Made by a program: the position numbers and the translations under genes. A stretch of 22,999 nucleotides of DNA, from the NCBI GenBank assembly GCA_018902385.1, contig JABSSW010000116.1:1-22999 (forward strand), read 5' to 3'. Below, one piece after another: positions 3,867 through 22,999 of the stretch (positions are counted from its first letter, which is position 1; every line of letters starts with the position of its first letter). The notes under the pieces are model-generated. The model ran no database searches. It worked only from the letters and a program-made list of their open reading frames with translations, and was not told the DNA's origin. The DNA comes from Physcia stellaris. Its lineage: Eukaryota > Ascomycota > Lecanoromycetes > Caliciales > Physciaceae.

Positions 3867-4342
3867 GTCGCTTTGACATCGCGACGAATGGACCTTCGAC
3901 TCTCATGCAAGCTACCTTTTTCAATCATCCAAAATCAGAGTGTCTTCGTACTTGAGTCGGACGGGACTGATGAATTTTGCATTCCCTCCTTCATACAGTC
4001 TTCATATAAGTGGAAGTCCAGATGGATATTGGAAGCTATGGGCCGAGGTAAAGATGGGAAATGTGCCCTGCCCCTTGATTTAACTCGAATGTTTTTCTTT
4101 TACGTTGAGAGAAGATCAAGCCTTGGGGTGTTCTGCTTCAGAGACGTGAGAGAGTATTTTATGAGGGTTTAGGGCTTCAAGATATTCTGCCCCTTACTGT
4201 TGCTGAGGTAATGATATGCTGAAATGTACGCACCATCACGTAGATGTTCGTCCGCACGGGTTTGTTGTCGCAAACACATCGAAACTTTCCATTTGCTCCA
4301 TGGCACCAACTCCAACAGCTATCGCCCAATAGAGACCGAATT
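3867..4342. other. intergenic, upstream region of the kinase gene
   Basis: A 99-codon plus-strand frame (3873-4172) has no recognisable motif and is not called as a gene. The segment before 4343 should hold the kinase promoter, but no clear TATA element stands out. Confidence 0.3.
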
Positions 4343-5229: not shown

Positions 5230-7162
5230 GTGAGACTTCGAACATTGCCGCCGCTGCCGGCCACTACCCGATACTATTCAACCTATGGCAAGATGCGAAG
5301 CGTCATTATCCCATTTGACGAGTACAATGGAGGCAGTAGGGTTGTCGAAAGTCTCGATGTTTTGAGCCATACGACAAGTGACCTCGTAGCCCCTTCACTG
5401 GAACTATGCAGATGCGCCGTTGCAGATTGCCGCCTGTCTCCTCAACCATTACTATCTACCATATCTCGCTTCGAATCTTAGGTATCGCTAGAGACCATAA
5501 TGTTGTCGACATGATCACTAGTGGCCCCGCCCGTGAATTCAAATCTAACGAAAAGGCTAACGAACGGCCTACAGACAACCAGCAAGAGGCAAAGAGCTCT
5601 AGCCCTTAACGCTCTCATAGGTAGACTTTCGAGAGTGCCCTTTGATCCGATCTACCGGTCTGTCTTCAGGGCCGGTCAGATGACCTAAGCCATGACCTCC
5701 GAAGCTATGCATGCTGGCGCGAATGAGACTTTCAACTTTGCAAACTCTGTCCTCTCCGCTCAAAATTCACAAGTAGAAAGAAAACCTATTCATACTACCG
5801 GTCCCTTTTCAACAATCATAGTATTTACCACATACCTTGGGTCCTCGTCTGAACCTTAGGAGGAACTTCCGGTCGCCCACTCAAGATGGTATTACTCCCG
5901 CGCAAAAGAAGTTAATCACTGGCTCTTAGAAAAGGTCTTTGCATCAAAGATTTCATGTTGGAGACATGTTGTGCATGTTAAAGAGTAGCTTGCGCATTGT
6001 CGCATCGGTTTTTAGCTTCGCAAAGATCGATAGCTTAAAGAAAGGTGATCTTGCGCGCTCAAGCAGCTTCCAAGACTTACCAGTGGGACCATGGGGCTGT
6101 CACACGGATGACGGGATCGCTGGGATTTTTTGGTAGAAGGCCCCAGATTTGGCTACTGAAGTATCAAGTGGTATTGAACACCAAGAAAGTAGGAAAGAGA
6201 GGGCCCGTCTATGCAGATGCTTTTTAGGCTTGAACATGTAGGTATTGACTCGATCAGAGATATCCGAACTTCATCACAAAGACTGTCAGTGTTCTGTATC
6301 AGGCCCTGGGAGACTGAACAGTGAACAACGGAAGCCTGCAGTCTTGCGATGGACGAATGGTTGGGGAAGTAATCAACCCGACTACTCCGTACTCCCTCGA
6401 GCTTTACCCACAGCAAGATCTGCATCCTACCTTGAGGCTTCTTTGAAAAAAGCGCAATAGACAAGAAACGACTCACGAGGGCCCAGATTCAGCCACACAC
6501 CCAACGACTGCCAAGGAGTTACATTTAGCACGCGTATTCATTATTAGGGAGACGTGTGACTGCAGGGAGACTCGCCTAGGCCTGAGCCCGATGTACCCCC
6601 TCGACGGCAGCTACGACTGTTACCCCCCTCTATGTGAGGATCCACATTGAACCCAACTAGGCAGTAATAACATCTCTCGCTCCTGTCAATACCTCTTCGG
6701 GCTTAAATTGAAAGCGCTGCAATCAATTGCTCCCTTTTGGCCTCTATGGCCCCCTGCGCTCGGCGTTTCGAATGTTCACGCACTATCAAAGTACTTTTCC
6801 CCTTTTTTGAAGGAACTTACCGACAACTGGGGTCGGGTGGTGCCGTCTGGTCCACCTGTAGCGTAGTATGACAATTGAGGGTCCCATGGCAGTCTTATGC
6901 TCAGCCCTGTAACATTTGCGATAGCTTCAAGATGCTATCGCGTACTCGCTTTCGTAAATTGGAAAAGACTATAGTTAGCATCTGGATGATACCCAAGCAT
7001 GAGTACGTGCGAGGTCTGTCTTCTGGTGGTGGTCGCCTCAAGCAGCAAGAAGTGCAAATACTCATGTACAAAAGGTAGCCGGTTCCCTCTCTCGAAATCT
7101 CATATTTCATCAATTCAGCACTTTTCATACCTTTCCTACAAATTCGTAACAAACCCCACATA
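5230..7162. other. 1.9-kb stretch without a recognised gene
   Basis: Several open frames of 60-107 codons occur on both strands (for example 5230-5481 plus, 6153-6476 minus, 6875-7078 plus). They overlap each other, carry no motif I recognise and have no intron structure that extends them. The last 100 bases should include the promoter and leader of the P450 gene. No tRNA, repeat or mobile-element end was seen. Confidence 0.35.
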
Positions 7163-9025
7163 ATGGCTAGCTCGCTGAGGGTCTCACTTCATGAACGCAC
7201 AGCCTCGACGACTGGCACCAGTGGCAACGTCCCACTCGTCACGCCAACAAATCATGGATATATCGCACACGAGGCGCCAGCCTTAGCTCACGCTGCCCGA
7301 TACCCTGTTATACTTGTTCTATCCCTTCTGATTCTTCACAAGTCTTTCTCCAGCGCCCAAAAATGGAAGACGGCAGCTCCGAGGGAACAATACCGGCGAC
7401 CAGCCCAGGTCCCATACCTGACGCCTATGTTAGGAAATGCTTTCTCGTTTCTATACGCTCCTCAAGAATTAGCCAGGTCAATATCGTGGGTGAACCCCGC
7501 GACTCATGTCACCCTTTGGGGATGGTCTCGTTGCTGACAATGCTGTAGTGAGAGACTCGGCAAGTCCGGCATCTTCAGTCTGAATATGCTCACCCAGGAA
7601 GTCTATGTCGTGTCAGGATCCGAATATCTTAATGCCATCTGGAAAGACACCAAAAAAGGTCATGATGTCACACGATGCCCTGAACCTCTCCCTGAGCAAT
7701 ATGTTCGGCGTACCAGGTAGAGAGATGCCGTTTTTCTTAGGCGATAGGACCGGCAGCTCGCATGACCCTCACGCTTCAAGTCCTGCCAGAGACCCTGACC
7801 ACCGTGTCTCATATCTCATGCTCAAAACTACAGCAGACTATCTCTCTGGGACGCATCTCACTGCCACAGCCCAAAAATATCAGGCCGCGATGAAGAGCCA
7901 GGTAGATATTCTGCCCATTGGGGACGATTGGGTTGAAATGGACGACCTCTTTAGCTTTACTCGCCGCCTCATAGCCAACTCAACAGTTGAGACGATGTTG
8001 GGCTCGAGCTTTTTGTCTCAATTTCCTGACTTCGTTGATAATTTCTACACATACAACAGCAGAATACGGAGGTTTCTCCAAGGATGGCCAAAATTCTTGT
8101 TGCCAAAGGCTTGGTGCGCACGTAAGAGATGTATTGACATTATGCAACAGTGGCGGAAGACAGTCAATGCTCAGGATTTTGATGGGAGTCCAATGATGCT
8201 TAAGAGGTGGAGCTGGTTTGAAAAATGGAACATTAGTGATGACGCTATCGCAGCCTCAGACCTTGGCATTCTGTGGGGGGTAAGTGCATCAGCCAAAGCT
8301 GATGGGGATTGAAAAGCAAATACTAATCCTTGATGCTCTACAGAACTTTCTCCAACGCTATCATCCTGGCTTTCTGGCTGTGCTGGCATACATTACAAGA
8401 TGAACAGTTGCTTTCCGCTGCCACTGTTGAGATGGATGAGTGCAGAACAAAAGAAGCCAGTAGCAGCTTGTCTTTCGACACGACCAAGCTCACCTCACAA
8501 CCTTTGTTGCAATCAATGCACGCCGAGGCTTTGAGGAAGTACGTCGCAGTTTACATTCCGCGAACGACCGAGTACGGAGAGACCTAAGTGCTTGACTACC
8601 AGATACCTAAGAACAAATTGGTCGTCATCAATAGCGCTATGGCACATATGGACGAACGTAACTGGAACCTGGGCACCCGAGGCGAACATCCTGTGGAGAC
8701 GTTTTGGGGGAGGTTCCTTACTCAGCACGCCGTCTCCTGCCGAAGCCGATGGAATAAAAGAGCGGTTCGGATGAGGACAAACCCAGGTTCTCACTCAACC
8801 GGTACAAAGGAGCTTGGGTTCCGTTTGGTGGAGGTATCCACCAGTGCCCAGCGAGAAATTGGGTGAAAAACCCAAATGCTCATCAGCCTCGCCGTGATTA
8901 CTGGAACATTCGAGATCGAGCTTAAGAATAAGGAGAAAAACCTGAGGATAGATTTCGCTAAATATGGTCTCGGCGCTTTAACTCCTGGGGAACAGGCCCC
9001 TTTTCGAATAAGGCGGAAGAGATAA
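7163..9025 (+). pseudogene. cytochrome P450 pseudogene (three exons, multiple frameshifts and one stop)
   Basis: Seen: start ATG 7163, a membrane anchor at about residues 47-59 (PVILVLSLLILHK) and a proline-rich hinge to LGNAFSFLYAPQELARS. Intron 1 is 7486-7548 (phase 2). The next exon has GIFSLNMLTQEVYVVSG. Intron 2 is 8280-8343 (GTAAGT, TACTAAT branch, CAG). Then come NAIILAFWL in the I-helix position, ExxR as EALR (8527-8538), PKNKLVV, and the heme loop PFGGGIHQCPAR (about 8818-8853), ending in FRIRRKR at TAA 9023-9025. Lesions: one extra base in A6 at 7652-7657, a shift just after intron 2 (near 8347), an in-frame TAA at 8585-8587, shifts near 8725 and 8772, and one extra A in A5 at 8866-8870. 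The usual CPGR is CPAR. Known: P450s are heme-thiolate monooxygenases anchored in the ER. Inference: dead gene. The FGGGxHxCPxR style recalls CYP7/8-like fungal P450s. Substrate unknown. Confidence 0.85.
8280..8343 (+). other. second intron of the P450 pseudogene
   Basis: GTAAGT donor at 8280, perfect TACTAAT branch sequence at 8321-8327 and CTCTACAG acceptor, 64 nt. The signals are intact although the flanking exons are frameshifted. Confidence 0.75.
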
Positions 9026-10358
9026 TTTAGGAGCACACCAGCATTGCAACATCATGGTACCTTGGAAATGTATTGAATGTATTCTACAATGCATACAATT
9101 TGATTGCCGAAGCTCCGATGTCGCCAGGATAGAGATCTCTTACGTTAATCCTTTGTTTCCCTTGATGCACCCCTAAACAAAGTCTAGGCGTAACTCCGGG
9201 TTTGGAAAGTGCTTGGAGCGTATCTGAGAAGATTGGGAAAGGTGTGTACCGACTCTAGTGAACGCGCCTGGGGCTTCTACAGATATGCTCAATGTACTGA
9301 GGAGTTACGTTGGAGTGACTATGAGAATGCCGAGTGAGTCTCACTAATGATCCTATCAAGATGCGGTTCTAATGCAAATGCTCATATCCGCATCCGTCCA
9401 ATTCTGTCTCGTATTTCCGTCGTTGGGTTAGAGCTACGTTCAGATTTAACACTATCGTACCAGCGCAGATGCATTTCCAACAGCGCCACTTCTCATCCAA
9501 GGAGGCGTTGGTCCATAGCCATCAAACTTCTTACAGCAATGAGAATTCCCATGTGAAAAAGGCTCTCGCTCAGTTGATGACTTGGAGTTATCTTCATGTA
9601 TGGTCGTCACCGTCATTCCGACCAAAGAAGGTTTTCTTTCACAGTCGGTCTTTGAGTGTCACGGCGCGAAGTTACTCTTAAACTAAAAGTCAGGTACCAC
9701 ATCCACCAGTATGGCACTCGGGCTGATAGCTTCCAGGTGAGACAAGGCCCGAGACGGGCCCCTGGGATCGCTCCTGCCGAGAAGCTTCCGGGCACCCAGC
9801 TCTCAAGGGTTAGAAACTCTCCATCAGTGACTGCGTAGACCATAAGCAAAGCGCGATGCCCCTGTCAAAGATGGGAAACATTAGTTAAGAAGGCCGACAG
9901 ACAGAAGGCGTGACTCGTAGCTTGACAACAAATCAGGGAGAAAGTCTTACGGTGAGCTTACTTTGGCCCGCGGCTTTCGGGCGCATGTACGATGGATCAC
10001 ATCCCGCAATCTCATTAGTACTCTAATTCGGTCCCTGCGCCTGTGAGCCGCTCGCTTGGAGATTCGAGACAGTAACGAGGAGCTATTTTCAGGTCTTCCA
10101 ATGCGGTGGGCAACTGAAATGTCCGAGGTAGGGGGTCTTGAATACGCGATGGCGGGTCGCCTGAACTTCTTAGGGAGTACCCTATGTTCCTGCATGACTT
10201 TCACTTCGACAATCCAGGCCCCGGAGCTTCGAAATTGACAAGGAATGGCAACATATTTGGACTACCCGTAGGCAGAGATCTCTGCAAGGCATTAAAAAGC
10301 TTGCTGAGAGCATCACACAACCCCCTGGAATCATCACCACCACCTCTTCATCGCGACG
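9026..10358. other. 1.3-kb stretch without a recognised gene
   Basis: There is no supportable coding frame. A short protein-like run (GFYRYAQCTEELRWSDYENA) lies near 9270-9332 before a stop but is isolated. Frames around 9613-10238 on both strands overlap and lack motifs. The final part is the upstream region of the secreted-protein gene at 10359. Confidence 0.3.
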
Positions 10359-10853
10359 ATGTACGCTCCTCATCTTACGATAGCCCTGACCTTCTCCGCG
10401 CTTTTTCGTCCCGTTCTCAGCTGGTCTACATGGGCTATCGAAGACGCGATAAACCCACAGGATATCCTCACACCCGATTGCAGCGTCGACACCTCCACCT
10501 CCACCGTAACCGACTGGGCGCTCACCCCCGCATGGCAAAACTCAATGCAAGAGTGTCTCTTCAAGATGAACAGCTCCAGCTGGGATGGCAATTTATGCGA
10601 ACCGGAATATCCAGACATCAGCAGGGATGTTGATCCACGACCCAATTTTCTCTTCTGGAAAGCCCACGCGCGCAACTTCAAAGACGCGCAGGACTGCTAC
10701 AATATGTGTGCGGCCTGCTTGCTGAAAGGGATCCAGATTGGGTTGGCGGTGACGACTTGGTGCCACTATGCCGCCTACACGGTGGGATGGAAGAAAGCTA
10801 CGTGTCAGATGGGGTTCGACTACCACGAATCGGGGTCTGGAGGGTCGTGGTGA
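10359..10853 (+). CDS. secreted cysteine-rich protein, 164 aa, unknown function
   Basis: Seen: a single intact exon, ATG with A at -3, TGA at 10851-10853. The N-terminus is hydrophobic (MYAPHLTIALTFSALFRPVL) and fits a signal peptide ending near residue 20-23. The mature part has eight cysteines at about positions 41, 66, 80, 113, 117, 120, 135 and 149, enough for four disulfides, including a CYNMCAAC cluster. It is rich in Trp, with several aromatic-Cys pairs. No transmembrane segment follows the leader. I do not recognise the family. The features fit an extracellular, effector-like or cell-surface protein, but that is inference from composition only. The codon choice looks like a real gene, and the reading frame is undamaged, unlike many neighbours. 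Confidence 0.75.
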   Translation: MYAPHLTIALTFSALFRPVLSWSTWAIEDAINPQDILTPDCSVDTSTSTVTDWALTPAWQNSMQECLFKMNSSSWDGNLCEPEYPDISRDVDPRPNFLFWKAHARNFKDAQDCYNMCAACLLKGIQIGLAVTTWCHYAAYTVGWKKATCQMGFDYHESGSGGSW

Positions 10854-10855
10854 AG

Positions 10856-11220
10856 CATGCGTTTGTATGAGTGCTTTTTCTTCGGCAGCGGCCCCTTCGA
10901 GCACAGTATAGCTTTTACGGATACCATTTGCATAAACCAGAAGCTCCATCTTATCACTCGTCGCCATTTGCAGAAGTCGCGCTGTTTCGTCCTCCGGTGG
11001 GAAATCTTGTTTGAAGCCTACTTCTAGCACAAGTCTCTCAGCGCCCACGTGTAGGACGTCGGCACCCTCGATATCCTCGTACCAATAGACAGCTATTACC
11101 ATCGTAGATCTACCCTTGAAACAAACTCAGGCGTGCCCAAAGGCTAGACTTGTCTATCAGCTCATGGAAATCAAGCTGTGGCCATCTTTCTTGCCAGTAA
11201 GGCTGCATCATCATCCGCTT
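10856..11220 (-). pseudogene. unidentified minus-strand coding fragment, one frameshift
   Basis: Seen on the minus strand: MMQPYWQERWPQLDFHELID and SSLWARLSLFQG (about 11214-11112) in one frame, then in another frame MVIAVYWYEDIEGADVLHVG, LVLEVGFKQDFPPEDE and LLVYANGIRKSYTVLEG (11102 to about 10870). The two join if one base is removed from the CCC at 11113-11115 (plus strand). The downstream frame runs on through the end of the secreted-protein gene on the other strand, so its true 3' end is unclear. The amino-acid composition looks genuine. No family is recognised. It could be one exon of a larger decayed gene reading leftward. Confidence 0.35.
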
Positions 11221-11511
11221 AGAGCCGAATGATATTCTGTTTGTAGTCAGAAAATAAAATGCCGAAACCCATTTACCTATATCTGGTCGTAATCCCGTAA
11301 GGTTACCAGTCCTTCAACAAATTTTCTTCGTGTTATATGTCAGGCCTCCCATTCTGTTACCAGTCCAGTCACTTTTTCCGGTGTTCTACGACCAGAAAAA
11401 CCACAGATGTCCGATGTGAAGTTCCGTGAGACGCACTATACCATCCACCGCAATAGTTTTCCGAAGTAGCCCGTTAGATCTACGGAATTGCCAAAGCTGC
11501 TCTGCTAAAAG
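11221..11511. other. intergenic, nothing recognised
   Basis: No coding, RNA or repeat signal that I can support. A possible short intron reading leftward (GTAAAT to ACAG, about 11237-11276) lies beside the minus-strand fragment but gives no consistent phase. Confidence 0.25.
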
Positions 11512-11775
11512 TGAGGACATTATATATCAGATACGCTTCTTGGAGCATCACGCAGTCGGGCTGCGCTCTTAAATAGCATCCACGATCGTGCTTCGGTCTT
11601 CAAGAGCGGAGAGATATTTGAGAGATACTTGACGAGACTGTTGAGAAAGCGAATCTACCTGATATCAAGCTTGACGGACTTCATCACTGCATTAAAGGAG
11701 ACCAACAATTTGCCGCGCTGTGTGACTTCTGCCTGTTGGTTAATTTCCGGATACCGTGCCCGAGAGCGTCTTTGA
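11512..11775 (+). pseudogene. unidentified open coding fragment
   Basis: Seen: an 87-codon frame ending at TGA 11773-11775, without a good start codon. It includes LLGASRSRAALLNSIHDRAS, then FKSGEIFERYLTRLLRKRIY, and ends near SACWLISGYRARERL. The composition is helical and protein-like. No family recognised. It may be one exon or a fragment of a lost gene; chance is possible. Confidence 0.25.
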
Positions 11776-12247
11776 AGACCTACATATGTTCAGGATGAAC
11801 AGCGAGCGCTGTTGAATTGTCTTTAGACAGTGGACCGCTCTCACTACGTGGCTAGCTGGCTGCGAGCATGAGTCTGTCTATCGTCTCTATCGAACTTAAC
11901 CGTACTCAGGATGAACCCTATAATATCACGGTCAACGTCTCATCAAATTACGTAGCTAATTTTTGTACTATAGTGAATAAGGTGCATCTTATTGTATCAA
12001 GAATTCCGGAAGAGCGGCCTTTGTGTGTCAAGCTGGCTGTTGTGTCCCGAAGCTCTACCGCAATCATTTGAGGTCTGTTTGGCTTTGACCAGATGATGAG
12101 AAAACTTGCAGGCATTTAATGATTTTTCTCAGATTGTTCGCACCCAAGTCTATGAACCTTCAGCGCTATGTGTGAACCGATTAGCAACCCAGAAAGAGAA
12201 CGACTCATGGAAATCTATCTTGATTCTTCTAAGCTATACCATGGCCT
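11776..12247. other. intergenic, nothing firm
   Basis: A 67-codon plus-strand frame (11868-12071) is open but has no motif. This stretch is downstream of the peroxygenase gene that ends at 12248 on the minus strand. Confidence 0.25.
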
Positions 12248-13844
12248 TCAAGGTCCTTTTGCTTGCTTATACCCGGGATACTTGTTATACTGGCCTTGAT
12301 CCACACTTACCAGCTTCGGACAATTCAAGCCCGCTAGGTTTTTATCGATGTTTGCAGCTAGTGGTGCAACGGCAGCGGTAACGTCCTTGTACAAGGACGT
12401 CACTAGTCCTGGTGCCTCGCTCTGGTACGAGCTGGAAGGTAAAACATTCCAGGTTGTTGCCTTTGGTGAGCGAGGCAGCATTGAACACCCCCTTGCTTAG
12501 ATTCGAAGGGTCAACGCCCACGAAAGAGTTGGGGGTACCGGTGTTGCCCCCAGGTGAGAGGAGTCGTGAATCTCTAAGTCCATACTGGTTGATATCTGAG
12601 AGGAAGCTAAGGAAGAATTAGTATACCCACTCATTTCTGAGGGACACCATTATAAACGGCTCACCCGGGAATCGTATATTCATCACCGACCGGTCGCTTG
12701 TACCAATTATCTGGAATTCGTTCATACCCGGGAGTGTACTTGAAGGCGCCACTGTTGCCTGTGACCGCGAAAAAGGATTTGAACGTTTGCTTATCGAGAT
12801 AGCCTTGGGGATAATCCGCCGAGTGATTGGCCATCATTGCTGGTGGGAAAGCATATCCAGCAGGAGAAACCAAAACTCCAGCGAACTGGGGAAAGAAGAA
12901 GTATGGGTTTTTGGATATAGAGTCGTTGAAGCGTGCTTGGCGGAAAGGAAACAGAGCACTGTACTGTTGAGGCGCCGGCTGTTAAGGACATGTAAGCATA
13001 TGAACTAGACTTACATTGACAAAAAGCGTCAAGATAAGAGGATACTTGGACGTACCGTGTTATCTAAGAGAGCATTATAATACTGTTGGAACTGGTCGAT
13101 TTGTAGGAGATAGTCGTTGCCCTTTTGAAGCGTCAGCACTAGTCTAGATTTCTAGTGGCTTCTTCCAAATAGCTTTCTTGACTGACTTAAGGAATAGGTC
13201 CCCACGGGGTTGGTGAGGTATCACCCTCATAATTATTGTGTGAGCCACTTAGGACCAGTGGGTACTCCCAAAAGACCAGTACTGCCCAAGATCGCCTCGA
13301 ACTGTTGGTCCACCTATAGTACCCAGGTTTGCAGAGAGTGCGTTACCATCGAAAAGCGTAAATTGCGAGGGAACGATCCGAGATCGACCGCCATCCGCTT
13401 AATTACCACTACTGTTAGCATCAAATCCATAGATAATGACTGGAAACTGTTTGAAAAGCTAATCAACATACCTGTGTTGACTGCTTGTATAATGGTGGGG
13501 ATATCGGCGACCCCATTGTGAGGTAAGTAACCGTGGTTTGCTAGAGCATTCAATCCAGGGCAAGGTCCGCGCTGGTCTCCACTCTTTGGTGCAACCCAGG
13601 CATGGGTACCTGTTGTAGAGACCTTTTGTGCCACGGGATCGAATACTGCGCGCCTTTTCAGCTCCTCCTTCAAATGAGGACATTCTTTCTCATTGCGCGT
13701 AGCCGCCTGCTGGGCGGCGTAGGGGCATTTGCCTTCTGCAACCAGTTTCAAGGCATCGAGAGTCGCTGCATCAAGATGTGGAAGAGCAGTTACAATGCTA
13801 ACAGCTATCGCAGCTATGCCTAGGGCTATTTGAAGTGACTTCAT
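12248..13844 (-). pseudogene. heme-thiolate peroxygenase-like protein (Peroxidase_2 family), five exons, frameshifted
   Basis: Seen on the minus strand: start at 13844, signal peptide (MKSLQIALGIAAIAVSIVTA), then PCPGLNALANHGYLPHNG (PCP, Cys95 the expected heme ligand), SHNNYEGDTSPT (EGD motif), RQARFNDSISKNPYFFF, VSPAGYAFPPAMMANHS, TPGYERIPDNWYKRP and SFVGVDPSNL. Introns: 13412-13471, 13122-13186, 12979-13055 and 12607-12664. Known: unspecific peroxygenases and chloroperoxidases use H2O2 to oxygenate substrates outside the cell. PCP and EGD are the family signatures. Lesions: one extra base in each of the runs at 13369-13371, 13352-13355 and 13206-13209, a one-base phase mismatch at the second intron, and a shift near 12430. 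A CATATAAG-like TATA lies at 13911-13918. A Lys stands where a catalytic Glu is expected. Inference: a pseudogene, or a working gene with base-calling errors. It is about 430 residues, the normal length for the long type. Confidence 0.85.
13412..13471 (-). other. first intron of the peroxygenase-like gene
   Basis: GTATGT donor at 13471 and GCTAACAG acceptor ending at 13412, 60 nt, phase 1. The length is a multiple of three and the intron has no stop in frame, so retention would not break the reading frame. Confidence 0.75.
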
Positions 13845-15237
13845 TCCTGGGTCTGGGGAGCCAAGCAGATTGTGGGGGTCCGAGAATAAAAGCCTCAGAC
13901 GCGACTACTTCTTATATGACAATAAAGCTCTTAGGAATCTAGGCGATTAGTGGTTGCTCAGGAAATGATATCATGATACCTGCAATTGCTTAGAAGCGAG
14001 ACACACCCCGCTGGAGAAACCAGGTGATGATGCTCTCTGACGATGGCTAGCCTTATGCATCGGCATTCGGAATGGACCCAGACCACTCGCGTTTCCACAT
14101 TTTACATGTGCTTTGTTTTAAGAAAAGGGTTTTAGGTGATCCCTATACCGATGCAACTGGACGACTCACACCATGCTCTTGAGTAAAATTCAAGCCTCCT
14201 CCACTGACGTCGAGGCTCCAAGCCTCCAAGAAGAAGATTTGGAGCTAGACCAAGTATGCTCGAATGTGACCTTCCTCATTCGGCTTAAAAGCCTCAGGCA
14301 GTCAACGATCGGGTCTAGTCGTCCTCACTTGATCTTGCTGTTTCTGTGGCTCAGATCGGTTAAGGCCCATGGTATCTAAGGTGGCTAAATTCGATGCACC
14401 TCTAGTGGGCGTAAAAGCCAGAATCTCATCCACAAACTTTCCAGTGGTCAATGGTGCTCCACAAATATCCTTGATCTGCTCGCCAACAACTTTGTCCAGA
14501 CGCATTGGTACTGGTAACATTCATGATATGTTGACATGTGAAGACCCCCAGTGTGCTGGCAACACATGATACGTTTGGTTACGAGAGGAACGCATTCGCG
14601 GTGTGGATGAGTCATTGAGGTCCCTCTGCATGACCCCGCATGACCCTGCATACTCAGATGGAAGTAAGCTCGGTAAGGACGAAGTCTCGGCCACAGCTCA
14701 GGAGGAGTAGGACCCAATGAGATGGTTCATGTTGACTTTTGGCCTCGCAAAAAACATTCCTCCACGAGGCTCACCAATACCGGCAGAGGCTAATCAATCC
14801 TTAACCAATACCTCTGTAGCGTGGCACACTCCACCGATAATATCGTCATCGTGCAGTGGGATTTTCACTCGTAATCCGGATTCTGTAATTGGCCTCGAAA
14901 GAATGGATGGGGTTTTGAATCTAGACTGCGCCTAGTCGCTCATAGCGCCAGCGGAGAAGTGATAATGATCCGTGGATAAGTCCTTGAAAATCTTCCTTGT
15001 TAATAGTCTCTGGTAGACCGGGCCCACCGGACTCATTGTTGCTTTCCTCAAGCTACAGAGTGGTCTTCAACCCGAGTCTGCATTATGAGCTAGTTCGTGG
15101 TGGCCAGTAGCTTTTCCAGGAGGCCCATGAGAACCCGATAAAAGCGACGGCAAGAGAATTAGATGAGCTGTGTTGAAACAGGCCGCAAAGACGTGAGGGA
15201 GAGAGCAAGCCGAGACGCTTCTGGAGAAAATCTATCT
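13845..15237. other. gene-poor stretch with weak fragments
   Basis: The first 80 bases are the peroxygenase promoter (TATA-like 13911-13918). Frames at 14173-14379 and 14369-14569 (plus) and 14302-14520 and 14448-14717 (minus) overlap on both strands. The minus frame ending 14302 includes DEILAFTPTRGASNLATLDT, protein-like but without a known motif. A 10-nt direct repeat (GCATGACCCC/GCATGACCCT) lies at 14628-14647. No gene is called. Confidence 0.3.
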
Positions 15238-15693
15238 AGTAAGTGATCAACCCAGTTCTTGTACCTCACCGATATGGCTCGATCAGCTACGCACACTCGC
15301 ATTCATGAAGATGGTTCCAGGTCTCGACCCATCCAGCCATTCACACGGATGAAAACACTTCCGCGAACGATGAAATATTCGTGACAAATACTTCGTGATG
15401 TCACTAAACTCTTCAAGCTTTCTCAGCCTCGGCACTTTCTCGGTCTCGCTGTCCTCGTCACATTCTTCATTGTCTACCTGGAGTCATTGCAATATAGGGA
15501 TCTAAACTCGGGAGGTTTGAGCTTTCCCGAACGATGTTTTCGTCTTTTTCTTGACATGAGGAAACCGTCAAGGATTATGGAGAAGCCCGCACGTGTCTCT
15601 TCCGAAATCGAAGTTTGGTCTCTGTCGCGTGACTTCCAAAGCAGCTGGCTCGAGCTTGAGCTGGTTGTGATCTCAGACGAAGTGATCACCTAG
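15238..15693 (+). pseudogene. unidentified decayed gene fragment with one membrane-like segment
   Basis: Seen: a plus-strand frame from about 15382 to TAG 15691-15693 with RDVTKLFKLSQPRHFLGLAV, a hydrophobic run LGLAVLVTFFIVYL, then GGLSFPERCFRLFLDMRKPS and SSWLELELVVISDEVIT. Just upstream other frames give LRTLAFMKMVPGLDPSSHSH and DENTSANDEIFV, and a GTAAGT donor lies at about 15239. Together these suggest one gene with indels. The codon choice is fungal-like (CTC, GTC, TTC, AAG). An opposite-strand frame (15474-15689) is also open, so the strand is not certain. Family unknown. Confidence 0.3.
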
Positions 15694-15906
15694 CTCTACT
15701 CTTAATGGAAATCTTTCGAAACTTGCGATAGGCTGCTTCGGTTCAAGACCTTATTTTTAGGCGATTCCGACGATTACTGCGACCACTGCGACCCGGCTTG
15801 ATTGACAATAGGAGACTTAAACCGAGAATGAGACAAAGGCCATCTACAATACAGACAGCACATGATGGCTGCTTATTCTTCTCCCAAAAAAGACCTGGGG
15901 GAACAG

Positions 15907-16206
15907 TCAGAACAGAAGAGCATACCACGAACAGGATTCACAAGCCCATAGAACTTTAATCCTGGCAGTCCCCTCTTCTGACGTCGTTGTGTAAGCCTCC
16001 AGCTGATGTCTTGCTTTCGCCAACCGACGAGCGATACTAGATCCACTGTAAGTGTCTGAGGTCAGATCTTGTGGCCAACAGCCCTTCTCCGTTGAAAAAG
16101 AGCTGGCATCGTCAGACTCAGACTGACTACGATTTGGGACATCATAGAGAAGTTGGTGAATAATCGCTAGGCTGGAGAAGCAGAATGGACAGAGAGATGT
16201 TCTCAC
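15907..16206 (-). CDS. possible minus-strand gene, unknown
   Basis: Seen: a 99-codon minus-strand frame from ATG 16206 with CPFCF near the start, ARRLAKARHQLEAYTTT and VLWACESC near the end. The codon use is plausible. A GTGAGT and a pyrimidine-rich CTTCTCCAG lie at its start, and GTATGC with CCCCCAG at its end, so it may be an internal exon. No family recognised and no homologous motif certain. Weak call. Confidence 0.2.
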   Translation of the reverse strand: MRTSLCPFCFSSLAIIHQLLYDVPNRSQSESDDASSFSTEKGCWPQDLTSDTYSGSSIARRLAKARHQLEAYTTTSEEGTARIKVLWACESCSWYALLF

Positions 16207-16992
16207 TCACGAGTGGTGGGACATAGGGTTAGTGTGGCGAAGATCTTTCAAATGAAAAACCTTCGAACGTAGGCCCAGTTGCAGAGATGAAGAGGATTTG
16301 TACATTCTGAACACTTTTTCTCGACGACTCCAAATGGGACGAGAACAGAAAATTTCCCTACGTACGACGCTGGGGTTCGTTGGAAGCGACTTTCGGTATT
16401 TCGTCGATTAAACACTACAAGCCGCTAGCGATTGTATAATCATAACGAGTGAGGTCCTACGGTGTGTATATCTTGGAAAGGACGACAGTAGTAGAGTAGT
16501 CGTTGAGACTGTCACTGACCAGTAACCCCTGTGGGCGGGTGCTAGAGTGCATGCTCTTGGCTGATCGACCGCTACGCGAGCCATTCATGAAGCACACCAA
16601 TCACCGAAGTCACATCAGAAATGCCTAGATGCTAGAGTTGTTTCAGAAAACCGTGCCTGACAAGAAACGACGTCACACTTGCAAAGCGAGGTCAATCATC
16701 CCGGACAAGCGAAATTGATGGCCTGATTGTCAAACCACCACGGGCGGATCGAAATCACTTCACCTTGTCAGCGTTGAATGTTGTCGCTGGCGCTGAATCT
16801 GCCTTGGGGCCGTCGCCTTGGCGACTGCACGATGGGCGTCATTTGAAAGGCGGACCGTAGGAAGACAAGGATGGCGTGAGGCACGACGGTCAAGTTATAA
16901 GTTTCTTTCTCCTTCAATTTATCCTTTGAATGAGTTTTCACTTGTGTGTATAGTCCTCAGTAGCATAACAAGGTCCCGGAACAAGCGTTATC
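16207..16992. other. upstream region of the lysozyme gene, no gene recognised
   Basis: About 790 bases with no convincing coding frame. A TATA-like TTATAAGT lies near 16894-16901, followed by a C/T-rich leader. This fits a promoter for the start codon at 16993. Confidence 0.35.
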
Positions 16993-17882
16993 ATGTATCA
17001 TTCCACAGCCATTCTCTTTTCACTCCTTCCTCTTACCCTCGCAGCCGTCAACGGCCCCTGCATCGATGGGACACCAGGCGTCTGCGTAACAACCTCCGAC
17101 TGCGCGGCCGCTGATGGCTCCTTCCGCTCTGGTTTCTGTCCGAACGACCCAGACAACGTGAGATGCTGCATTAAGCCCGAATGCGGGTCTGGAGGCAATT
17201 GTCGGTCTACATCCTCCTGTGATGGTACTCCCAAAGCTGGCCTTTGCCCTGGTCCTTCGACTTTCCAGTGCTGCCAACCTAAGAGCAATGGTGGTGGTGG
17301 AGCGCCAGGCGGTGGTGGGAGTACGGGGGACCACAGCTTGAGCGCAAATGGAGTGGACTTCATCGCTGGCTTCGAGGGGTTCGAGCCCAACTTTTATAAC
17401 GATGCTGCTGTAAGTACTCACTACCCCAATTCTAGTATTGGGATTTACTCATCTTCCAATCAGGGCGTAAGGACCATAGGCTACGGGCACGCCTGCCAGG
17501 AGGCAGGGGAATGCGACGACATCAATCCCCCCATCACCAAGGCCGAGGGCAAGGACCTGCTCAACAGCGATGCAAACACCTTCGAAGCCTGCGTCAACAA
17601 GGACGTAACCGTCGCCGTATGTTACCAGCCCCACAAATGAGTCTCCTGATCAACTACCGAATACTAACACGGCTTCAGATAAATCAAAATCAATTCGACG
17701 CCCTCGTCAGCTTCACCTATAATCTCGGCTGCGGAAACTTGGCGAATATTGCACACACCCTGAACGCCAATGACTTCTCGGGCGCTACGGCTCAGATGAA
17801 GGAATACACACACGGTGGAGGGAAGGTCTTACCAGGCTTGGTGCGGAGAAGACAGGCGGAAGTAGATCTCTTCAACTCGTGA
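16993..17882 (+). CDS. secreted GH24 (phage-type) lysozyme with duplicated 6-Cys N-terminal module, 3 exons
   Basis: Exons 16993-17409, 17464-17616 and 17679-17882 give 257 residues. Introns are 54 nt (GTAAGT to ATCAG) and 62 nt (GTATGT, ACTAAC branch, TTCAG), both phase 0. Seen: signal peptide (about 1-20); two successive Cys-rich units, Cys 23, 31, 37, 49, 58, 59 and Cys 64, 70, 76, 85, 93, 94, each ending in CC; a Gly-rich linker (100-112); then the lysozyme domain from about 118. The catalytic triad has the GH24 spacing E128, D137, T143 (GFEG, YND, TIGYGH), like Glu11-Asp20-Thr26 of T4 lysozyme. QFDALVSFTYNLGCG and LVRRRQAEVDLF are typical of the C-terminal half. Known: GH24 enzymes cleave the MurNAc-GlcNAc bond of bacterial peptidoglycan. 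Inference: an intact extracellular antibacterial or bacterium-feeding enzyme. The Cys units may bind cell-wall polymers. Confidence 0.92.
17410..17463 (+). other. first intron of the lysozyme gene
   Basis: GTAAGT donor and AATCAG acceptor, 54 nt, phase 0, with no in-frame stop. Removing it joins NDAA to GVRTIGYGH and gives the exact GH24 spacing between the catalytic Asp and Thr. Confidence 0.85.
17617..17678 (+). other. second intron of the lysozyme gene
   Basis: GTATGT donor, ACTAAC branch site and GGCTTCAG acceptor, 62 nt, phase 0. It contains an in-frame TGA, so it must be removed to reach the conserved last exon. Confidence 0.88.
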
Positions 17883-18481
17883 AAGGCCTGCTATTGCTAG
17901 ATGGGACGGGAAAATGTAAATTATCCTTATAACTTGACCCGAGAAGAGCAGCCTCTTCATTTTCACTCATCTGCAGTGACTCCCCTCTCATCGTGTATGA
18001 AGGTCTCTCCCATCTTCGCCTTCTTGTTTCAGTCTAGCCTTTCGAATGCTTTCATCTATCGATAACTTAACAATCCATTACTGCTAAAATGTTAAGTCAG
18101 CTACCTGTCCATAACGGCGCAATCGCAATCCAGTACTGAGGGTGTATTTCACCTCGCTCACACTGAACTGTTCCTCTGACTCCTGGGGACTGGTGTAGAG
18201 CATGATTGTGTTCGCACTCAGCCTTGGGAGTTCCAGACTCAAGCAATCTCCTCTCTCCATGTGTCATGGCCACTGATTAGCTCTCTACGTCCCAAGCGGC
18301 CATGCTCGCCATGCTATTTCTATGCGACAGAGGCCGTGACGCCGGCCCATACGCCCGTCATTCTCTATCGTTGTCAAACCTCCAATTCGGCTAGGTGTAT
18401 GCCGTTTCCAAAGTCTGGCACTGTCTTTCAGACTCTCGGACATGACTGCATTTTCAAACTGCAGCTTCCTTTCCAAATTGA
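17883..18481. other. convergent 3' intergenic region
   Basis: About 600 bases between the 3' ends of the lysozyme gene (plus) and the membrane-protein gene (minus). A plus-strand frame starting at 18261 is open but runs antisense into the membrane-protein exon and has no motif. Nothing else recognised. Confidence 0.35.
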
Positions 18482-19662
18482 TCAAGGGGGCTTGTCATTC
18501 TGCACCCGCAGAGACGTTGGTATGTATTGGCTCCTTGTCTCAACAGCTTCTCGGGGTCCCTCTGCTGTGGTACTGAAGCTTTCCGTTCGGCTTGTGCTTG
18601 GTGCCAGAAGTTCGACGATTCGTCCCCGCTCAAGATCACTGTCTTCGAATCTAAGCTTTTGCTCTGTGTGTGTATTAGCCTTAGTACTACATAAATTGTA
18701 GGCTTGAAATAAGTACCCGTGTATACTTCTTTAAAAGTCAAAAGAAGGGAACCAAGCATCAACATGGTTACTATTTGGCCGAAGCTAAGCTGATGTTCAT
18801 CCCCAATCATCTCACCAGTAGGTAACTGGCGGTTCAAAAGGATGCCACCAAGACCAAGAGTGAACCAGACGATGTCGTAATAGAGGTTCACGGTCAAGGA
18901 TCCTAAGATGGCTGCAAACCCAAGATAGACTCTGATGACGATCGACACGAACCATTGCCAGAGAACGGTTTTTGCAGACGTTCTTTGGAAAGCAAGAATA
19001 CTTGACTTCGAGAGGTTGGGGTCTCGACGCTTCGAGTTTTGTCTCATCCGTTCAAGACACAGCCGGGGTTGTGACAGGAGGAACTCATCCAGTGCTGTAG
19101 TATCAAAGACTCTCCAGATGGATGTGCCGTAGTGCAAGATCAGAGCACAGACGTATGGGTTTGTCTGGGTGAAACTCTCGTCTTGCTCCTCAAACAAACA
19201 TTGGGCAGGACATGGCGTGCTCGCACTCCACGCGGGATGACTCGCCAAAATGATAGCTAGAAGCATCATTACCAGCATCAAGACCATGATGCATACCCTC
19301 CAATTACGCAACGTTCTCCGTTCCTGCAAATAGCATTTCAGGACGCTGAGGCTAGTCATATGGGTGTTTGAAAACCAGGCCAGATCCACCACGATGGAGA
19401 AGTGGTATACAGAAATGGAGCAATGCTTCCAGTAACCGGCGATCAGGATGGCGACGCCGAACAGTAATTGGTAATCGCTCAACAGGAGGACAAGACGCTC
19501 GATGATTGGTCGCCAGAAGTTTTTACGTTCTGGGCTGATACGGAGAAAGCGTAGCTTCTCGAGGTTACGGAATAGCCAGCCATCGATGGCGTTGTCGTCG
19601 TATCCTCGGAGCAGACCCAGAAGGTGAGAGACGAATATGTTGGAGTCTGAATCGTATTGCAT
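18482..19662 (-). CDS. multi-pass integral membrane protein, unknown function (2 exons)
   Basis: Exon 1 is 19662-18717 and exon 2 is 18663-18482, on the minus strand, giving 375 residues. The 53-nt intron (18664-18716; GTACTT donor, TACTAAG branch-like, ACACAG acceptor) is in phase 1. Splicing gives a hydrophilic tail with FEDSDLERGRIVELLAPSTS and SQYIPTSLRVQNDKPP. Seen: predicted membrane segments at about residues 56-76, 123-141, 232-256, 257-277 and 295-311, with a possible one at 84-100 (ISVYHFSIVVDLAWFS). A Cys-containing loop (CPAQC) follows segment 123-141. Known: this resembles the many uncharacterised fungal proteins with a DYQLLFGVAIL-type helix and a VYHFSIVVDLAWFSNTH-type segment. 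No enzymatic motif. It is intact. An LTR element begins about 150 bases upstream of its start. Confidence 0.8.
18664..18716 (-). other. intron of the membrane-protein gene
   Basis: GTACTT donor at 18716 and CACACACAG acceptor ending at 18664. The unspliced frame stays open to 18454 but gives an unremarkable tail; the spliced frame gives a better, charged tail ending at TGA 18484-18482. Confidence 0.7.
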
Positions 19663-19848
19663 TGAAAAAGTATGTAGGTTCTAGTTACATGCGACCGTGG
19701 CTTATTTGACCTATTGCCCTAGTCACGTGTGCCAAGGCCCTGAAGCATACCGATTCTAACACTCCCTTTTGCACCTGAAGCCTTGAAGTCTGATATATTT
19801 ATTCTCTTTATCGTGTGACGTCATGATGTTGAGTTTTCATTTGTATGT

Positions 19849-20029
19849 GAAATTTTTGATTTCGATTTTCTGTTACGTTGTACGAGATTCTGAATCTCGA
19901 TTTTCTGTTCAATTCGTTGAAATCTTGAATCTTTCTTGTTGTACTATTTTACGAAATCTTGATTTCGATTTTCTGTTTCATTTGATGAAAATCTTGATTT
20001 TCGATACGTTGATGAAAATTTTGATTTTC
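19849..20029. repeat. degenerate tandem array, six units of about 34 bp, each with a short palindrome
   Basis: Short inverted repeats begin at 19849 (GAAATTTTTGATTTC), 19883 (CGAGATTC-T-GAATCTCG), 19919 (imperfect), 19952 (CGAAATC-TT-GATTTCG), 19987 (GAAAATC-TT-GATTTTC) and 20014 (GAAAAT-TTTG-ATTTTC). Spacings are 34, 36, 33, 35 and 27. GATTTTCTGTT-like sequence follows several of them. Confidence 0.6.
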
Positions 20030-20446
20030 GTTACATGTGAAATTGAAATCAATGTTTCGAAACAATCAGATTCTTTTTAGATTTGAAAATTCTTTGTTGT
20101 TTTCGTTAACGAAATCGACAATCGATATTTTCATTTGATGAATCTGTATAATTCTCATCGATATCGAATTCGAAAATGTAAATCAATGTGTAAAATTTAA
20201 TTTTCTTGATTTTGTCATTCAGTGTGTTGATTTTATTTCGTTGCGCTTTTTTTTATTTTTTTTTGAATCATTCGAAAGTCGATTTTAAATAAATATTTCA
20301 ACATAAATCTGAATGTAATACGTTCGCGCTATCGAACAATTAACTCGTGCGTTAATCTTGAATACGCGTTTGCGTAACGCAAGTGCTTGACATTAATAAT
20401 GAATGTAATTCAAATGTAACATAGTTATAAGCGCACGTTTAATAGA

Positions 20447-20479
20447 AACGTCATGAATTGATGTCATAATCATGACGTT
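20447..20479. repeat. 10-bp perfect inverted repeat in the putative LTR
   Basis: AACGTCATGA (20447-20456) and TCATGACGTT (20470-20479) are exact reverse complements, 13 nt apart. More CGTCAT/ACGTCA copies follow at 20488-20493 and 20501-20506. They resemble CRE/ATF-type sites and may be LTR regulatory elements, which is inference. Confidence 0.5.
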
Positions 20480-20756
20480 AATCAAAGCGTCATAATTATT
20501 ACGTCAAATACGAATATAAATAGACTGTTCATTTTTTTTCTCGTTGAGTTTCAACGATTAATTTTACATTTACAGTATTCATACGATGCTGATAATTAAT
20601 AATTGAAATTTATTAAATTTCACGTTTTTCAATAGTTCGATGCGCTATCGTAAAGCTAATACATTATTGAAATTTGCTTTACGTCAGCGCGTCTAAATTT
20701 TTACAATTCTAATCGTTTCATTTTTCGAAAAGAAAGATTCGAGATTTATTAGCATC

Positions 20757-21938
20757 ATGATTGAATCAAATATCAACATTTCAGATTTTAGAGTAAAAAA
20801 TCTTGATGATGTTTCAAATATTTCAAATAGTTTTATTTTTTCGAGTTGAAGCGACGTGAATCAAACTCAACAAAACATTTTTATTATCGACAATGCGACG
20901 ACGCAAAACATTTTGAAACAAATGACAATTTGCTGAAAATTTAACGATGAAATCGTTCCAATTGCGAATTCAGATTCGAACAAATCAAAACGCAACGTAA
21001 TTCGTTATCGCATCGCAAACGCAATCAATATCAATTGTATTTATCGTTCATTTCAAAAACGAAAATTCAAAAACAATTTTTTATAAAGACGAAAGCGAGT
21101 GAACATATTCGTTGATTTCGCGAAATCGAATTCGAATTTCTGACGTGTTTTAATTATTTTATGAATGATCGATCGAAAATTCTTTGATGCATGTCATCGT
21201 TGCGAAAAAAATTCTCAATTTCAATGATTCAATCGCATCGACAACGATAAAGACTTGAAAAATATTTTTTACGATTATTACAAATTTTTTTTTTGAATTT
21301 GATAGCAAATTCAATGATCGTCGATTCGTCGTTTACGAAAATTGAAAACGAATTCGTCAACGTGCGAATCAAAAATGTTTAATTTCAAAATGAATTCGAG
21401 AAATATGAAATTCATTTGTCGTTTTTTGATTTAATTATTCGATCAATTTTTCTTTTGTAAACTATCATTATCGTTGAAAAAAAGTTGTTAAATATCGAAA
21501 AATATCGATTTAAAAAAAAACTTGTTTGCGAAAATTGTCATGTTGAAAAAGATTTTTGAACGCGAACGACGAACAAATTCGCGTGTTCAAAATAATCAAA
21601 ACATTTTTCAAGCAAAAAAAAAACAAAAACAAAAATAAAAAGCAATTTCAACAACAAAATCAACAGCAAAATCAATCGCAAAATCGTTTCAATCAAAACA
21701 TTTTTCACGATTTCAACGCAATACGCATGCGAAAAACAAGAAAACGCAATGAAAATGATCAAAATACAAAATCAACGTGTTATCGATATCATCGCAAAAA
21801 TCATTATGTTTTCGATTGTAAAATTGATGTAAATGAATCGAATAATCAACATATCATCGTTGTCGTCAACGTCACATTTGAGTCAAAAAAAAATCAAGTT
21901 TCGCGAACGCTTCGCAAGCGAAACAAAAAAAATCAATA
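20757..21938 (+). pseudogene. gag-like region of the retrotransposon, broken
   Basis: Seen: an ATG-initiated frame at 20757 with TGA stops at 20847 and 20934 and TAA at 21084. From about 21295 a second frame reads to TAA 21937 with internal stops at 21343, 21391, 21406, 21427, 21475 and 21544 (all TGA) and one TAA at 21511. It includes a Gln-rich stretch (about 21640-21690) and a zinc-knuckle-like CYRYHRKNHYVFDC at 21778-21819. In the knuckle pattern CX2CX4HX4C the second Cys is Tyr (TGT to TAT would explain it). Known: gag of Ty3 elements ends in such a knuckle. Dead copy. Confidence 0.7.
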
Positions 21939-21998
21939 AAAATTCGAAATCTTATCGTGATTCAAGACTGAATCAGATTTTTGAAAAATGAGCGACTT

Positions 21999-22385
21999 GT
22001 TCGCGCGTTCGTAAATTCTGAAATCAAAATCAATTTTATCAATCAAGTTTTTGTCACTCAATGAGAAATGCAATCGATAAACGAAATTATTTTATCGTTA
22101 TCGAATTTTCTGAATGAACAAAGTCGCTATTGTCATCAAACGCATGAACTCATTTACAACATAATAAATTCGTGAAATCAACATCGTCAATGCAAAATTT
22201 TGTTCTATGCAATTGATTATATTGAATCGAATTTTATTTTGAATATGTCTATGTTGATTGTCGAAAACATATTAATGAATTCGGCGAAAAGCAATTGACG
22301 TTTCAAAATCAAATTCAAAAAATTTCAAATTGATACGTCTAGGCAATTTGCAAAAAACTTAAAGAATCACGAACAAATATTCGCG
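21999..22385 (+). pseudogene. retrotransposon aspartic-protease-like segment, inactivated
   Basis: The frame is continuous with the RT frame downstream. RAFVNSEIKINFI stands where Ty3-type proteases have a DSG-type active site (for example A-L-V-D-S-G-A), so the catalytic Asp appears to be Asn and the Gly to be Glu. Later LFYAIDYIESNFILNMSMLI matches the expected second half, where a G-x-D-x-I-L-G-type motif is changed. TGA stops lie at 22062, 22173 and 22296, each where the family commonly has Trp. Confidence 0.65.
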
Positions 22386-22999
22386 TTGATGTGTGCAAAA
22401 ATCGAAAAGCAATCGAAAAAACAAAAATTTAAAATTACGAAAATGTCAAAACAATTAAAGAATTTAAAAAGTCAATTTGACGACATTAAGACAAATATTT
22501 TATTCGAATTAAATAAAAATGATCATGTTATTGATTTGAAAAAGAACGAAAAATCGTCGTTCATGTCGTTGTATAATTTATCACAAAATGAACTAGCGAA
22601 GTTTCGACGTTACATCGAAAATGTTTTGATCAAAAAATGAATTAAACATTCAATTTTTTTCGTTGACGCGTCGATATTTTTTGTATCGAAAAAAAATGAA
22701 AATTTTCGTTTTTGTGTAAATTATCGAGATTTGAATGCGATGATTATCAAAAATCGTCATTCATTATTTCTAATCACAAAGATTTTGAATCGTTTTAGTG
22801 ATGTCAAAAAATTCATCAAAATCGATTTGAAAAATGCTTATCATCGAATTCGCATCAAGCAAAACGACGAATGAAAAACGACGTTTCGCACGCGATATGA
22901 ACATTTTGAATATCAAATCATGTTTTTTGAATTAATCAATGTTTCAACAATTTTTCAAATTTATATCAATAAGATTTTGCGAAAACTTGTCGACGTTAT
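22386..22999 (+). pseudogene. Ty3-type reverse transcriptase, N-terminal half, inactivated and cut by the window
   Basis: The frame runs to the window end with TGA stops at 22638-22640 and 22872-22874. Seen: the leader with YNLSQNELAKFRRYIE, then FFVSKKNENFRFCVNYRDLN (RT block 1), ILNRFSDVKKFIKIDLKNAY and HRIRIKQNDE (blocks 2-3, with the first catalytic-type Asp), TTFRTRYEHFEYQIMFFELI (block 4, family consensus F-R-T-R-Y-G-H-F-E-Y, here Gly to Glu) and INKILRKLVDV. The YxDD active site would follow just beyond the window. Known: copies RNA to cDNA for element transposition. This copy cannot. Confidence 0.85.

What the first reader, a model, noticed from the sequence alone, without database searches (positions are those of the whole stretch)
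19783..22999. Near-total loss of CpC/GpG in a retrotransposon, with CpA and CpG kept
Seen, counted by eye: over about 3.2 kb I find one CC (20957-20958) and two GG (22282-22283, 22342-22343). C and G are each roughly one base in seven, so several dozen of each would be expected. CpG is common, and CpA is very common, for example in the Gln-rich gag stretch. The flanking genes have abundant CC and GG. Established: fungal RIP usually converts CpA to TpA on both strands, though preferences vary between fungi. Here the target looks like the 5' C of CpC on both strands (CC to TC, GG to GA). That is an unusual specificity and may point to a distinct RIP-like mutator or deaminase. I know of no CpC-only RIP as the standard form.
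Basis: partly seen in the sequence, partly recalled or inferred. Interest (0 to 1): 0.85.

Follow-up and report, generated by a model that had tools for sequence, protein, structure and literature searches.

The report
Retrotransposon-mutating defence with reversed sequence preference
In the lichen-forming fungus Physcia stellaris, repeated DNA has been mutated by a defence of the kind called RIP, but it changes C before C or T instead of C before A, so the usual tests for this defence would miss it.

Summary
In 19783-22999 there is 1 CC and 2 GG, where composition predicts about 63 each. I identified the 44 Mb genome as Physcia stellaris, a lichen fungus. Copies with normal CC/GG exist for three repeat families in the same genome, so the change could be measured directly. 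Against the unmutated copy of this Ty3-type element, mutated copies carry C-to-T at 96.7% of CpC, 84.5% of CpT, 7.1% of CpA and 3.1% of CpG, on both strands and whatever the 5' neighbour. Two further families give the same order. Two unmutated copies of one family differ by 5-7% in all four contexts, so CpA and CpG lie near background. Stops inside 149 reverse-transcriptase matches are 249 TGA, 33 TAA and 3 TAG, as GG-to-GA predicts. The target is therefore CpY (CpC before CpT), not CpC alone. Best explanation: repeat-induced point mutation by a RID-class methyltransferase with changed 3'-base preference; the genome has two such genes plus a DIM-2. Two standard RIP indices score the element as not RIPped. 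A 1,239-species survey concludes that RIP-like defences share a CpA preference (PMC12543289).

The parts
19638..20313 (.). Dispersed repeat next to the gene at 18454-19662; CC/GG kept to 19782, absent from 19783 on. Related stretches in L024 and L027 stop having CC/GG within about 60 bases of the same place.
20314..20713 (+). 5' long terminal repeat of the Ty3-type element; matches LTRs of copies elsewhere in the genome
20714..22999 (+). Internal part of the element (presumed gag, not recognised by Pfam in L018; start of pol), hypermutated at CpC and CpT on both strands; cut off by the end of the contig
   Evidence: (window row: CC 0.948, CT 0.749, CA 0.049, CG 0.044)
22686..22988 (+). Reverse transcriptase match (RVT_1, E 2.8e-11) interrupted by one TGA
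1..19782 (.). Unmutated genic flank with normal dinucleotides (CC 0.96, GG 0.94 of expected)

Best explanation
This is repeat-induced point mutation with a reversed sequence preference. In the sexual phase of Physcia stellaris, a RID-class cytosine methyltransferase recognises duplicated DNA and drives C-to-T at CpC first and CpT second on both strands, leaving CpA and CpG nearly untouched. Shown here: the targets, their order, both strands, occurrence in repeats beside normal genes, mostly sharp edges, a burst relative to other substitutions, and the presence of two RID-class genes and one DIM-2. Inferred: that RID (one of the two copies) is the enzyme, that it acts before meiosis, and that duplication is the trigger.
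For: Family 1 (reference L018; alignments of at least 300 bases): C-to-T at CC 12,686 of 13,118, CT 11,847 of 14,024, CA 936 of 13,256, CG 412 of 13,253; 5' neighbour nearly irrelevant (ACC .968, CCC .965, GCC .958, TCC .976). Each of 17 loci with a long alignment shows the same order, with both strands alike. Family 2 (reference in L017): CC .862, CT .514, CA .076, CG .043. Family 3 (reference L036, 7 mutated copies): CC 544/604, CT 514/717, CA 51/604, CG 29/613; its second unmutated copy L098 differs at .06/.07/.05/.05, which is the background. Burst: L099 has 128 C>T/G>A but only 10 other changes from the reference, whereas unmutated L098 has 20 and 17. 249 of 285 stops inside RT matches are TGA. 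Bimodal genome: 6 of 59 readable stretches have 0 CC+GG, the other 53 have 14 or more. RID-class genes on C5 and C6, DIM-2 on C3.
Against: No cross, methylation data or mutant links enzyme and mutation. Dependence on duplication is read only from which DNA is affected. Copies are not independent samples. The RID on C5 shares its catalytic motifs with other lichen proteins, including one of Usnea, so sequence does not point to the source of the new preference; the part after motif VIII could not be compared widely. Mutated sites show no strand clustering, so no strand-biased single event is seen. One edge (L011) tapers over about 300 bases. Only one genome was examined.
Confidence: 0.78

Rival explanations
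1. Repeats are methylated at CpC/CpT (for example by DIM-2) and the methylcytosines deaminate slowly over time, with no dedicated mutator.
For: A DIM-2 gene is present. Copies differ in the extent of CpT change.
Against: The burst: L099 and L100 have 128 C>T/G>A each with 10 and 11 other changes, fewer other changes than separate the two unmutated copies (17). CpC is 80-83% converted already in the lightest mutated copies fetched. CpG is kept at about three times expectation.
Confidence: 0.12
2. A single-strand DNA cytosine deaminase (APOBEC-like) edits the element during reverse transcription or in repeats.
For: Nearly pure C-to-T with a neighbour preference, as deaminases give.
Against: Deaminases of that kind are recalled to read the 5' neighbour; here the 5' neighbour has almost no effect and the 3' one decides. 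Both strands are hit equally, while editing of minus-strand cDNA would be one-sided. A different repeat in the flank is affected too. I did not search the genome for deaminase genes.
Confidence: 0.05
3. Ultraviolet damage at adjacent pyrimidines in a sun-exposed lichen.
For: Targets CpC and CpT are dipyrimidines.
Against: C with a 5' pyrimidine and 3' purine is changed in only 6.0% (732 of 12,264), against 90.5% (11,450 of 12,658) for 5' purine and 3' pyrimidine. UV is not expected to select repeats.
Confidence: 0.01
4. No mutation process: the family always lacked CC/GG, or the deficit is an assembly artefact or follows from AT-richness.
For: The deficit is so complete that an artefact has to be considered.
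Against: Copies with normal CC/GG lie in the same assembly. Three families show the pattern. The hybrid Nanopore/Illumina assembly has normal DNA close to the edges. Shuffles exclude composition.
Confidence: 0.01

Closest known systems
Repeat-induced point mutation of Neurospora crassa and Leptosphaeria maculans (RID-dependent in Neurospora, CpA)
   Same: Heavy C-to-T and G-to-A in repeats, both strands, RID-class and DIM-2 genes present, low-GC blocks beside normal genes
   Different: CpC and CpT are the targets and CpA is nearly spared; products are TpC/GpA and TpT/ApA, TpA is low, CpG is kept; stops come mostly as TGA (from Trp), not TAA/TAG (from Gln)
CpT-biased RIP signals: Magnaporthe oryzae, Botrytis, Sclerotinia (PMC4352252), and CpT-dominant results for Neurospora Tad1 and control fungi (PMC2621366, PMC7882544)
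   Same: CpT is a reported target in ascomycetes that carry RID-class genes
   Different: In the passages seen, CpT goes with CpA and no CpC-led pattern is named; here CpC outranks CpT and CpA is near background
CpG-biased RIP-like mutation of Microbotryum and rusts (Masc2-type, PMC4352252)
   Same: C-to-T in transposons with a non-CpA context
   Different: CpG is the one dinucleotide best preserved here
C/T differences between nuclei of Rhizoctonia solani AG8 (PMC4014442)
   Same: Its Table 2 lists CpC as the most frequent CpN class (one per 301 bp in repeats, against 490-583 for the other three)
   Different: Unpolarised heterozygous differences spread over genes and repeats alike in a basidiomycete, discussed by the authors as CpG-biased
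RIP in the lichen fungus Cladonia rangiformis (PMC12542154)
   Same: Lichen fungus with strong low-GC blocks, sharp borders, RID and DIM-2
   Different: Mutated DNA peaks near 16% GC there; wholly CC-free loci here are 24-28% GC because CpA and CpG stay. The passages I read give no dinucleotide context

Membership tests
Repeat-induced point mutation (RIP) | Almost pure C-to-T/G-to-A change in repeated DNA | tested here: met
   25,881 C>T or G>A against 1,477 other substitutions (plus-strand table); searches likewise
Repeat-induced point mutation (RIP) | Unique genes spared, sharp borders | tested here: met
   53 of 59 readable stretches normal; most edges within 100-200 bases, L011 over about 300
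Repeat-induced point mutation (RIP) | Preference for CpA (typical, though CpT and CpG variants are known) | tested here: not met
   CpA 7.1% against CpC 96.7%; TpA/ApT 0.44 and (CpA+TpG)/(ApC+GpT) 1.43, both on the not-RIPped side (cut-offs 0.89 and 1.03 as quoted)
Repeat-induced point mutation (RIP) | RID-class methyltransferase encoded in the genome | tested here: met
   C5 (P0195) and C6 (L033) genes, motifs PCQ, EQT/EET and GNAVPP present
Repeat-induced point mutation (RIP) | Triggered by duplication above a length and identity threshold | not tested
   The families measured are repeated, but no threshold was measured and I did not show that every CC-free stretch is repeated
Repeat-induced point mutation (RIP) | Acts before meiosis and requires RID | not testable with these tools
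   Needs crosses and mutants
Ty3/Gypsy LTR retrotransposon with chromodomain | LTRs, and order RT - RNase H - integrase - chromodomain | tested here: met
   In copy L018: LTRs 99.5% identical, RVT_1, RT_RNaseH, Integrase_H2C2, rve, Chromo. The window copy itself ends within RT
APOBEC-type deaminase editing | 5'-neighbour preference (recalled) | tested here: not met
UV signature | C-to-T at dipyrimidines including 5' pyrimidine (recalled) | tested here: not met

The most novel reading that the evidence does not exclude
A RID paralogue (the C6 gene; its closest named match is in Heterodermia, which I recall as a member of the same family) has evolved recognition of a 3' pyrimidine and carries out a CpY form of RIP in a clade of lichen fungi. 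This defence is invisible to the standard RIP indices and spares Gln and Arg codons, so genomes scored as RIP-negative may have it.
Probability: 0.35. Interest if true: 0.85.

Novelty: new variant of a known kind. Interest (0 to 1): 0.76.

Why it matters
RIP is mostly treated as a CpA process, and a 2025 survey of 1,239 fungi concluded that RIP-like defences share that preference (PMC12543289; abstract, two results sections and passages read). Here the preference is nearly inverted: the typical target is spared and CpC is almost eliminated. That gives a natural pair for asking which part of a RID-class enzyme reads the base after the cytosine. It shows that detection by TpA/ApT-type indices can fail completely. 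It also predicts a different outcome for the elements: few stop codons (mostly Trp to TGA), heavy loss of Pro and Gly codons, and AT-rich blocks that stay rich in CpG and so could remain open to CpG methylation.

Tried and rejected
Rejected: composition, an ancestral lack of CC/GG, CpC-only targeting (CpT is also hit), UV damage, strand-biased editing, assembly artefact (hybrid assembly from an axenic culture; normal DNA close to the edges). Tried without result: search of viral contigs for relatives of the element (4 pattern matches, none confirmed); a residue in the C5 RID that would explain the preference (120 proteins; the catalytic motifs are shared by other lichens, and residue 731 is shared only with the nearest match, outside those motifs; most database proteins stop before the part after motif VIII, so that part was not compared); the RT gene at C39:289400-290800 as a further family (single copy).

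Literature: 10 searches. I saw no CpC-led or CpY-targeted RIP in what I opened. Of the papers listed as holding the word CpC I looked at passages in PMC2621366, PMC5555474, PMC4014442, PMC5602860 and PMC9073689 (in these two it is a strain number), PMC7979813 and PMC4522978 (one figure legend only, results by family not seen); in PMC7493409 the word was not found in the main text. Others that hold the word, such as PMC5496416, PMC3017866, PMC2973834 and PMC10170752, were not opened. [quoted passage not shown] The library lacks most subscription papers, including Clutterbuck 2011 (known here only as cited in PMC4352252), so an earlier report cannot be excluded.

Counts dropped: one search used alignments of 300 bases or more out of 48, and LTR positions count more than once because both LTRs match. 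One search used alignments of 600 or more: 17 of the 20 sequences given had one. One search used 4 alignments in 3 loci; two of 199 bases were dropped. One search used 8 of the 40 other matches listed, about 700 bases of each. One search scored 150 of 527 candidates; one search holds 149 of those 150 rows, one lost in copying. One search had 60 fixed, not random, positions; one was all N, although the script's own tally counted it as mutated (7 of 60). One search placed 61 of the 70 proteins given; nine lacked the search motif, among them the Aspergillus, Talaromyces and DIM-2 rows.

Full report
Observation. In window 19783-22999 CC occurs once and GG twice; 1000 base shuffles give means of 63.4 and 62.6 with minima 41 and 42. 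The 19.8 kb to the left are normal. The change is sharp: 12 CC+GG in 19701-19800, then none in the next 500 bases.

Organism. The window is contig C116 of a 44.0 Mb genome in 147 contigs. A database protein of Physcia stellaris (P0195) is covered by exact 12-mers of locus L035 at 928 of 932 residues, and its contig length, 1,184,035, is that of C5. The lengths of C26 (594,864) and C28 (586,074) equal the scaffold and contig N50 printed for that assembly in PMC7513301 (passages read). The paper gives 46.57 Mb in 184 scaffolds, so the genome held here is somewhat smaller. The organism is a lichen-forming fungus of the Lecanoromycetes, sequenced from an axenic ascospore culture with Nanopore and Illumina. 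In the passages I saw (12 of 20 places) RIP of P. stellaris is not mentioned.

Element. From 20314 on the window holds the start of a ~7.35 kb LTR retrotransposon. Sixteen further fetched loci have long alignments to the copy in L018. That copy is 51.6% GC with normal CC/GG, has LTRs 99.5% identical, and shows RT, RNase H, integrase and chromodomain matches in Ty3 order. It is flanked on both sides by CC-free DNA. Bases 19783-20313 belong to another repeat, with relatives in L024 and L027 in which CC/GG end near the same point.

Mutation spectrum. Against L018, C-to-T was found at CpC 96.7%, CpT 84.5%, CpA 7.1% and CpG 3.1% (13,118 to 14,024 cells each). Changes of A or T were few: A 493 of 26,836 and T 622 of 24,602. 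All 17 loci with long alignments (window included) show the order CC > CT >> CA > CG, with C-strand and G-strand rates alike. The 5' neighbour and the -2 base hardly matter; the base after the cytosine decides. In CCA with the second C still present, 3,362 of 3,367 first Cs are T. CpA is not always at background: two loci reach .165 and .146 (L014, L021).

Other families. In a second family (reference L017 8745-9801, 51.5% GC; four alignments in three loci) the values are CC .862, CT .514, CA .076, CG .043. In a third, two unmutated copies exist: L036 and L098 differ at .06/.07/.05/.05 for CC/CT/CA/CG, which is background. Seven mutated copies range from CC .80 to .97, CT .49 to .91, CA .05 to .18 and CG .02 to .09. 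CpC is therefore consumed first, then CpT; the heaviest copies also show some CpA. The lightest of these, L099 and L100, carry 128 C>T/G>A each with 10 and 11 other changes, while the two unmutated copies are separated by 17 others. The mutations therefore look like a burst, not slow decay.

Genome scale. Of 60 fixed positions of 250 bases, one was all N; 6 of the other 59 had no CC or GG and 53 had 14 or more. The positions were chosen, not drawn at random, so the 10% is a rough figure. Among RT matches (150 scored of 527 candidates) 139 of 149 transcribed rows carry stops: 249 TGA, 33 TAA, 3 TAG, and 111 rows have TGA only. This follows if TGG becomes TGA by GG-to-GA while CAA, CAG and CGA are mostly spared.

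Indices. The usual RIP indices give 0.44 for TpA/ApT and 1.43 for (CpA+TpG)/(ApC+GpT) in the window element, both on the not-RIPped side of the cut-offs 0.89 and 1.03. An index for CpY, (CC+GG+CT+AG)/(TC+GA+TT+AA), is 0.08 in the element, 0.02 and 0.03 in L014 and L012, 0.90 in the window flank and 1.04 in the L018 element.

Enzymes. PF00145 gives four matches in three loci. C3 encodes a DIM-2-like protein (DUF7893 and DNA_methylase). C5 encodes a 932-residue RID-class protein, 49% identical to an Aspergillus candidus methyltransferase over the catalytic domain and 66% to one of Usnea florida. C6 encodes a second RID-class protein whose catalytic part runs across introns to the GNAVPP motif. 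In the search with C6 (74 matches, most unnamed) the closest named match was Heterodermia at 72%; the other named species were Aspergillus and Talaromyces at 33-36%. That search admits only proteins of 0.55-1.75 times the query length. The two RID-class proteins fall in separate, well-supported halves of a tree of 61 rows (the bootstrap had not settled and a long-branch warning was given). The catalytic motifs of the C5 protein are shared with other lichen proteins. The names RID and DIM-2 rest on similarity and on recalled motifs. Which gene sets the preference is open.

Mechanism. A rule set by the 3' base, on both strands, without 5' influence, fits a C5 cytosine methyltransferase acting on double-stranded repeats, as in RID-dependent RIP. 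It does not fit deaminases that read the 5' base (recalled) or UV: with a 5' pyrimidine and 3' purine 6.0%, with a 5' purine and 3' pyrimidine 90.5%. Slow deamination of methylated repeats is disfavoured by the burst and by the retention of CpG.

Literature. PMC4352252 (passages read) lists CpA, CpT and CpG signatures for ten genomes and has no mention of CpC. PMC12543289 (abstract, two results sections, passages) screens 1,239 species, concludes that RIP-like defences share a preference for CpA, and lists no Lecanoromycetes among its 130 species with strong recent signatures; I do not know whether Physcia was included. It also says that some clades show evidence for undescribed RIP mechanisms. 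PMC12542154 (passages) reports strong RIP in a Cladonia with no dinucleotide context in what I saw. PMC3897900 (passages) uses CpA-type indices on a lichen fungus. PMC2621366 and PMC7882544 (passages) report CpT-dominant change in some fungi; PMC2621366 also lists CpC among dinucleotides depleted in Stagonospora repeats. PMC4014442 (passages) stresses CpG in Rhizoctonia, though its Table 2 has CpC as the most frequent class. The searches and what I did not open are listed under Tried and rejected.

Verdict. It is a new variant of a known kind. The link to a particular enzyme, the sexual timing and the spread among lichen fungi remain to be shown.

Noticed in passing
window 16993-17640 (+): Secreted-looking protein with a Phage_lysozyme match (PF00959, E 3.4e-9), a bacterial/phage-type domain in a lichen fungus.
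   Followed up: partly
window 13314-13844 (-): Start of a family-2 (chloroperoxidase-type) peroxidase, PF01328.
   Followed up: no
window 4669-5229 (+): Protein kinase fragment (PF00069) in the genic flank.
   Followed up: no
L034 1470-4664 (-): The DIM-2-like protein of Physcia and its three nearest relatives (P0075-P0077) lack the BAH match (PF01426) that most of the 120 listed relatives carry.
   Followed up: no
G000:C39:289400-290800: An 833-codon open reverse-transcriptase frame without stops, single copy by DNA search and with normal CC/GG.
   Followed up: partly
L018 1256-8615: An unmutated element lying in CC-free DNA, which suggests that mutated blocks still receive new insertions.
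   Followed up: yes
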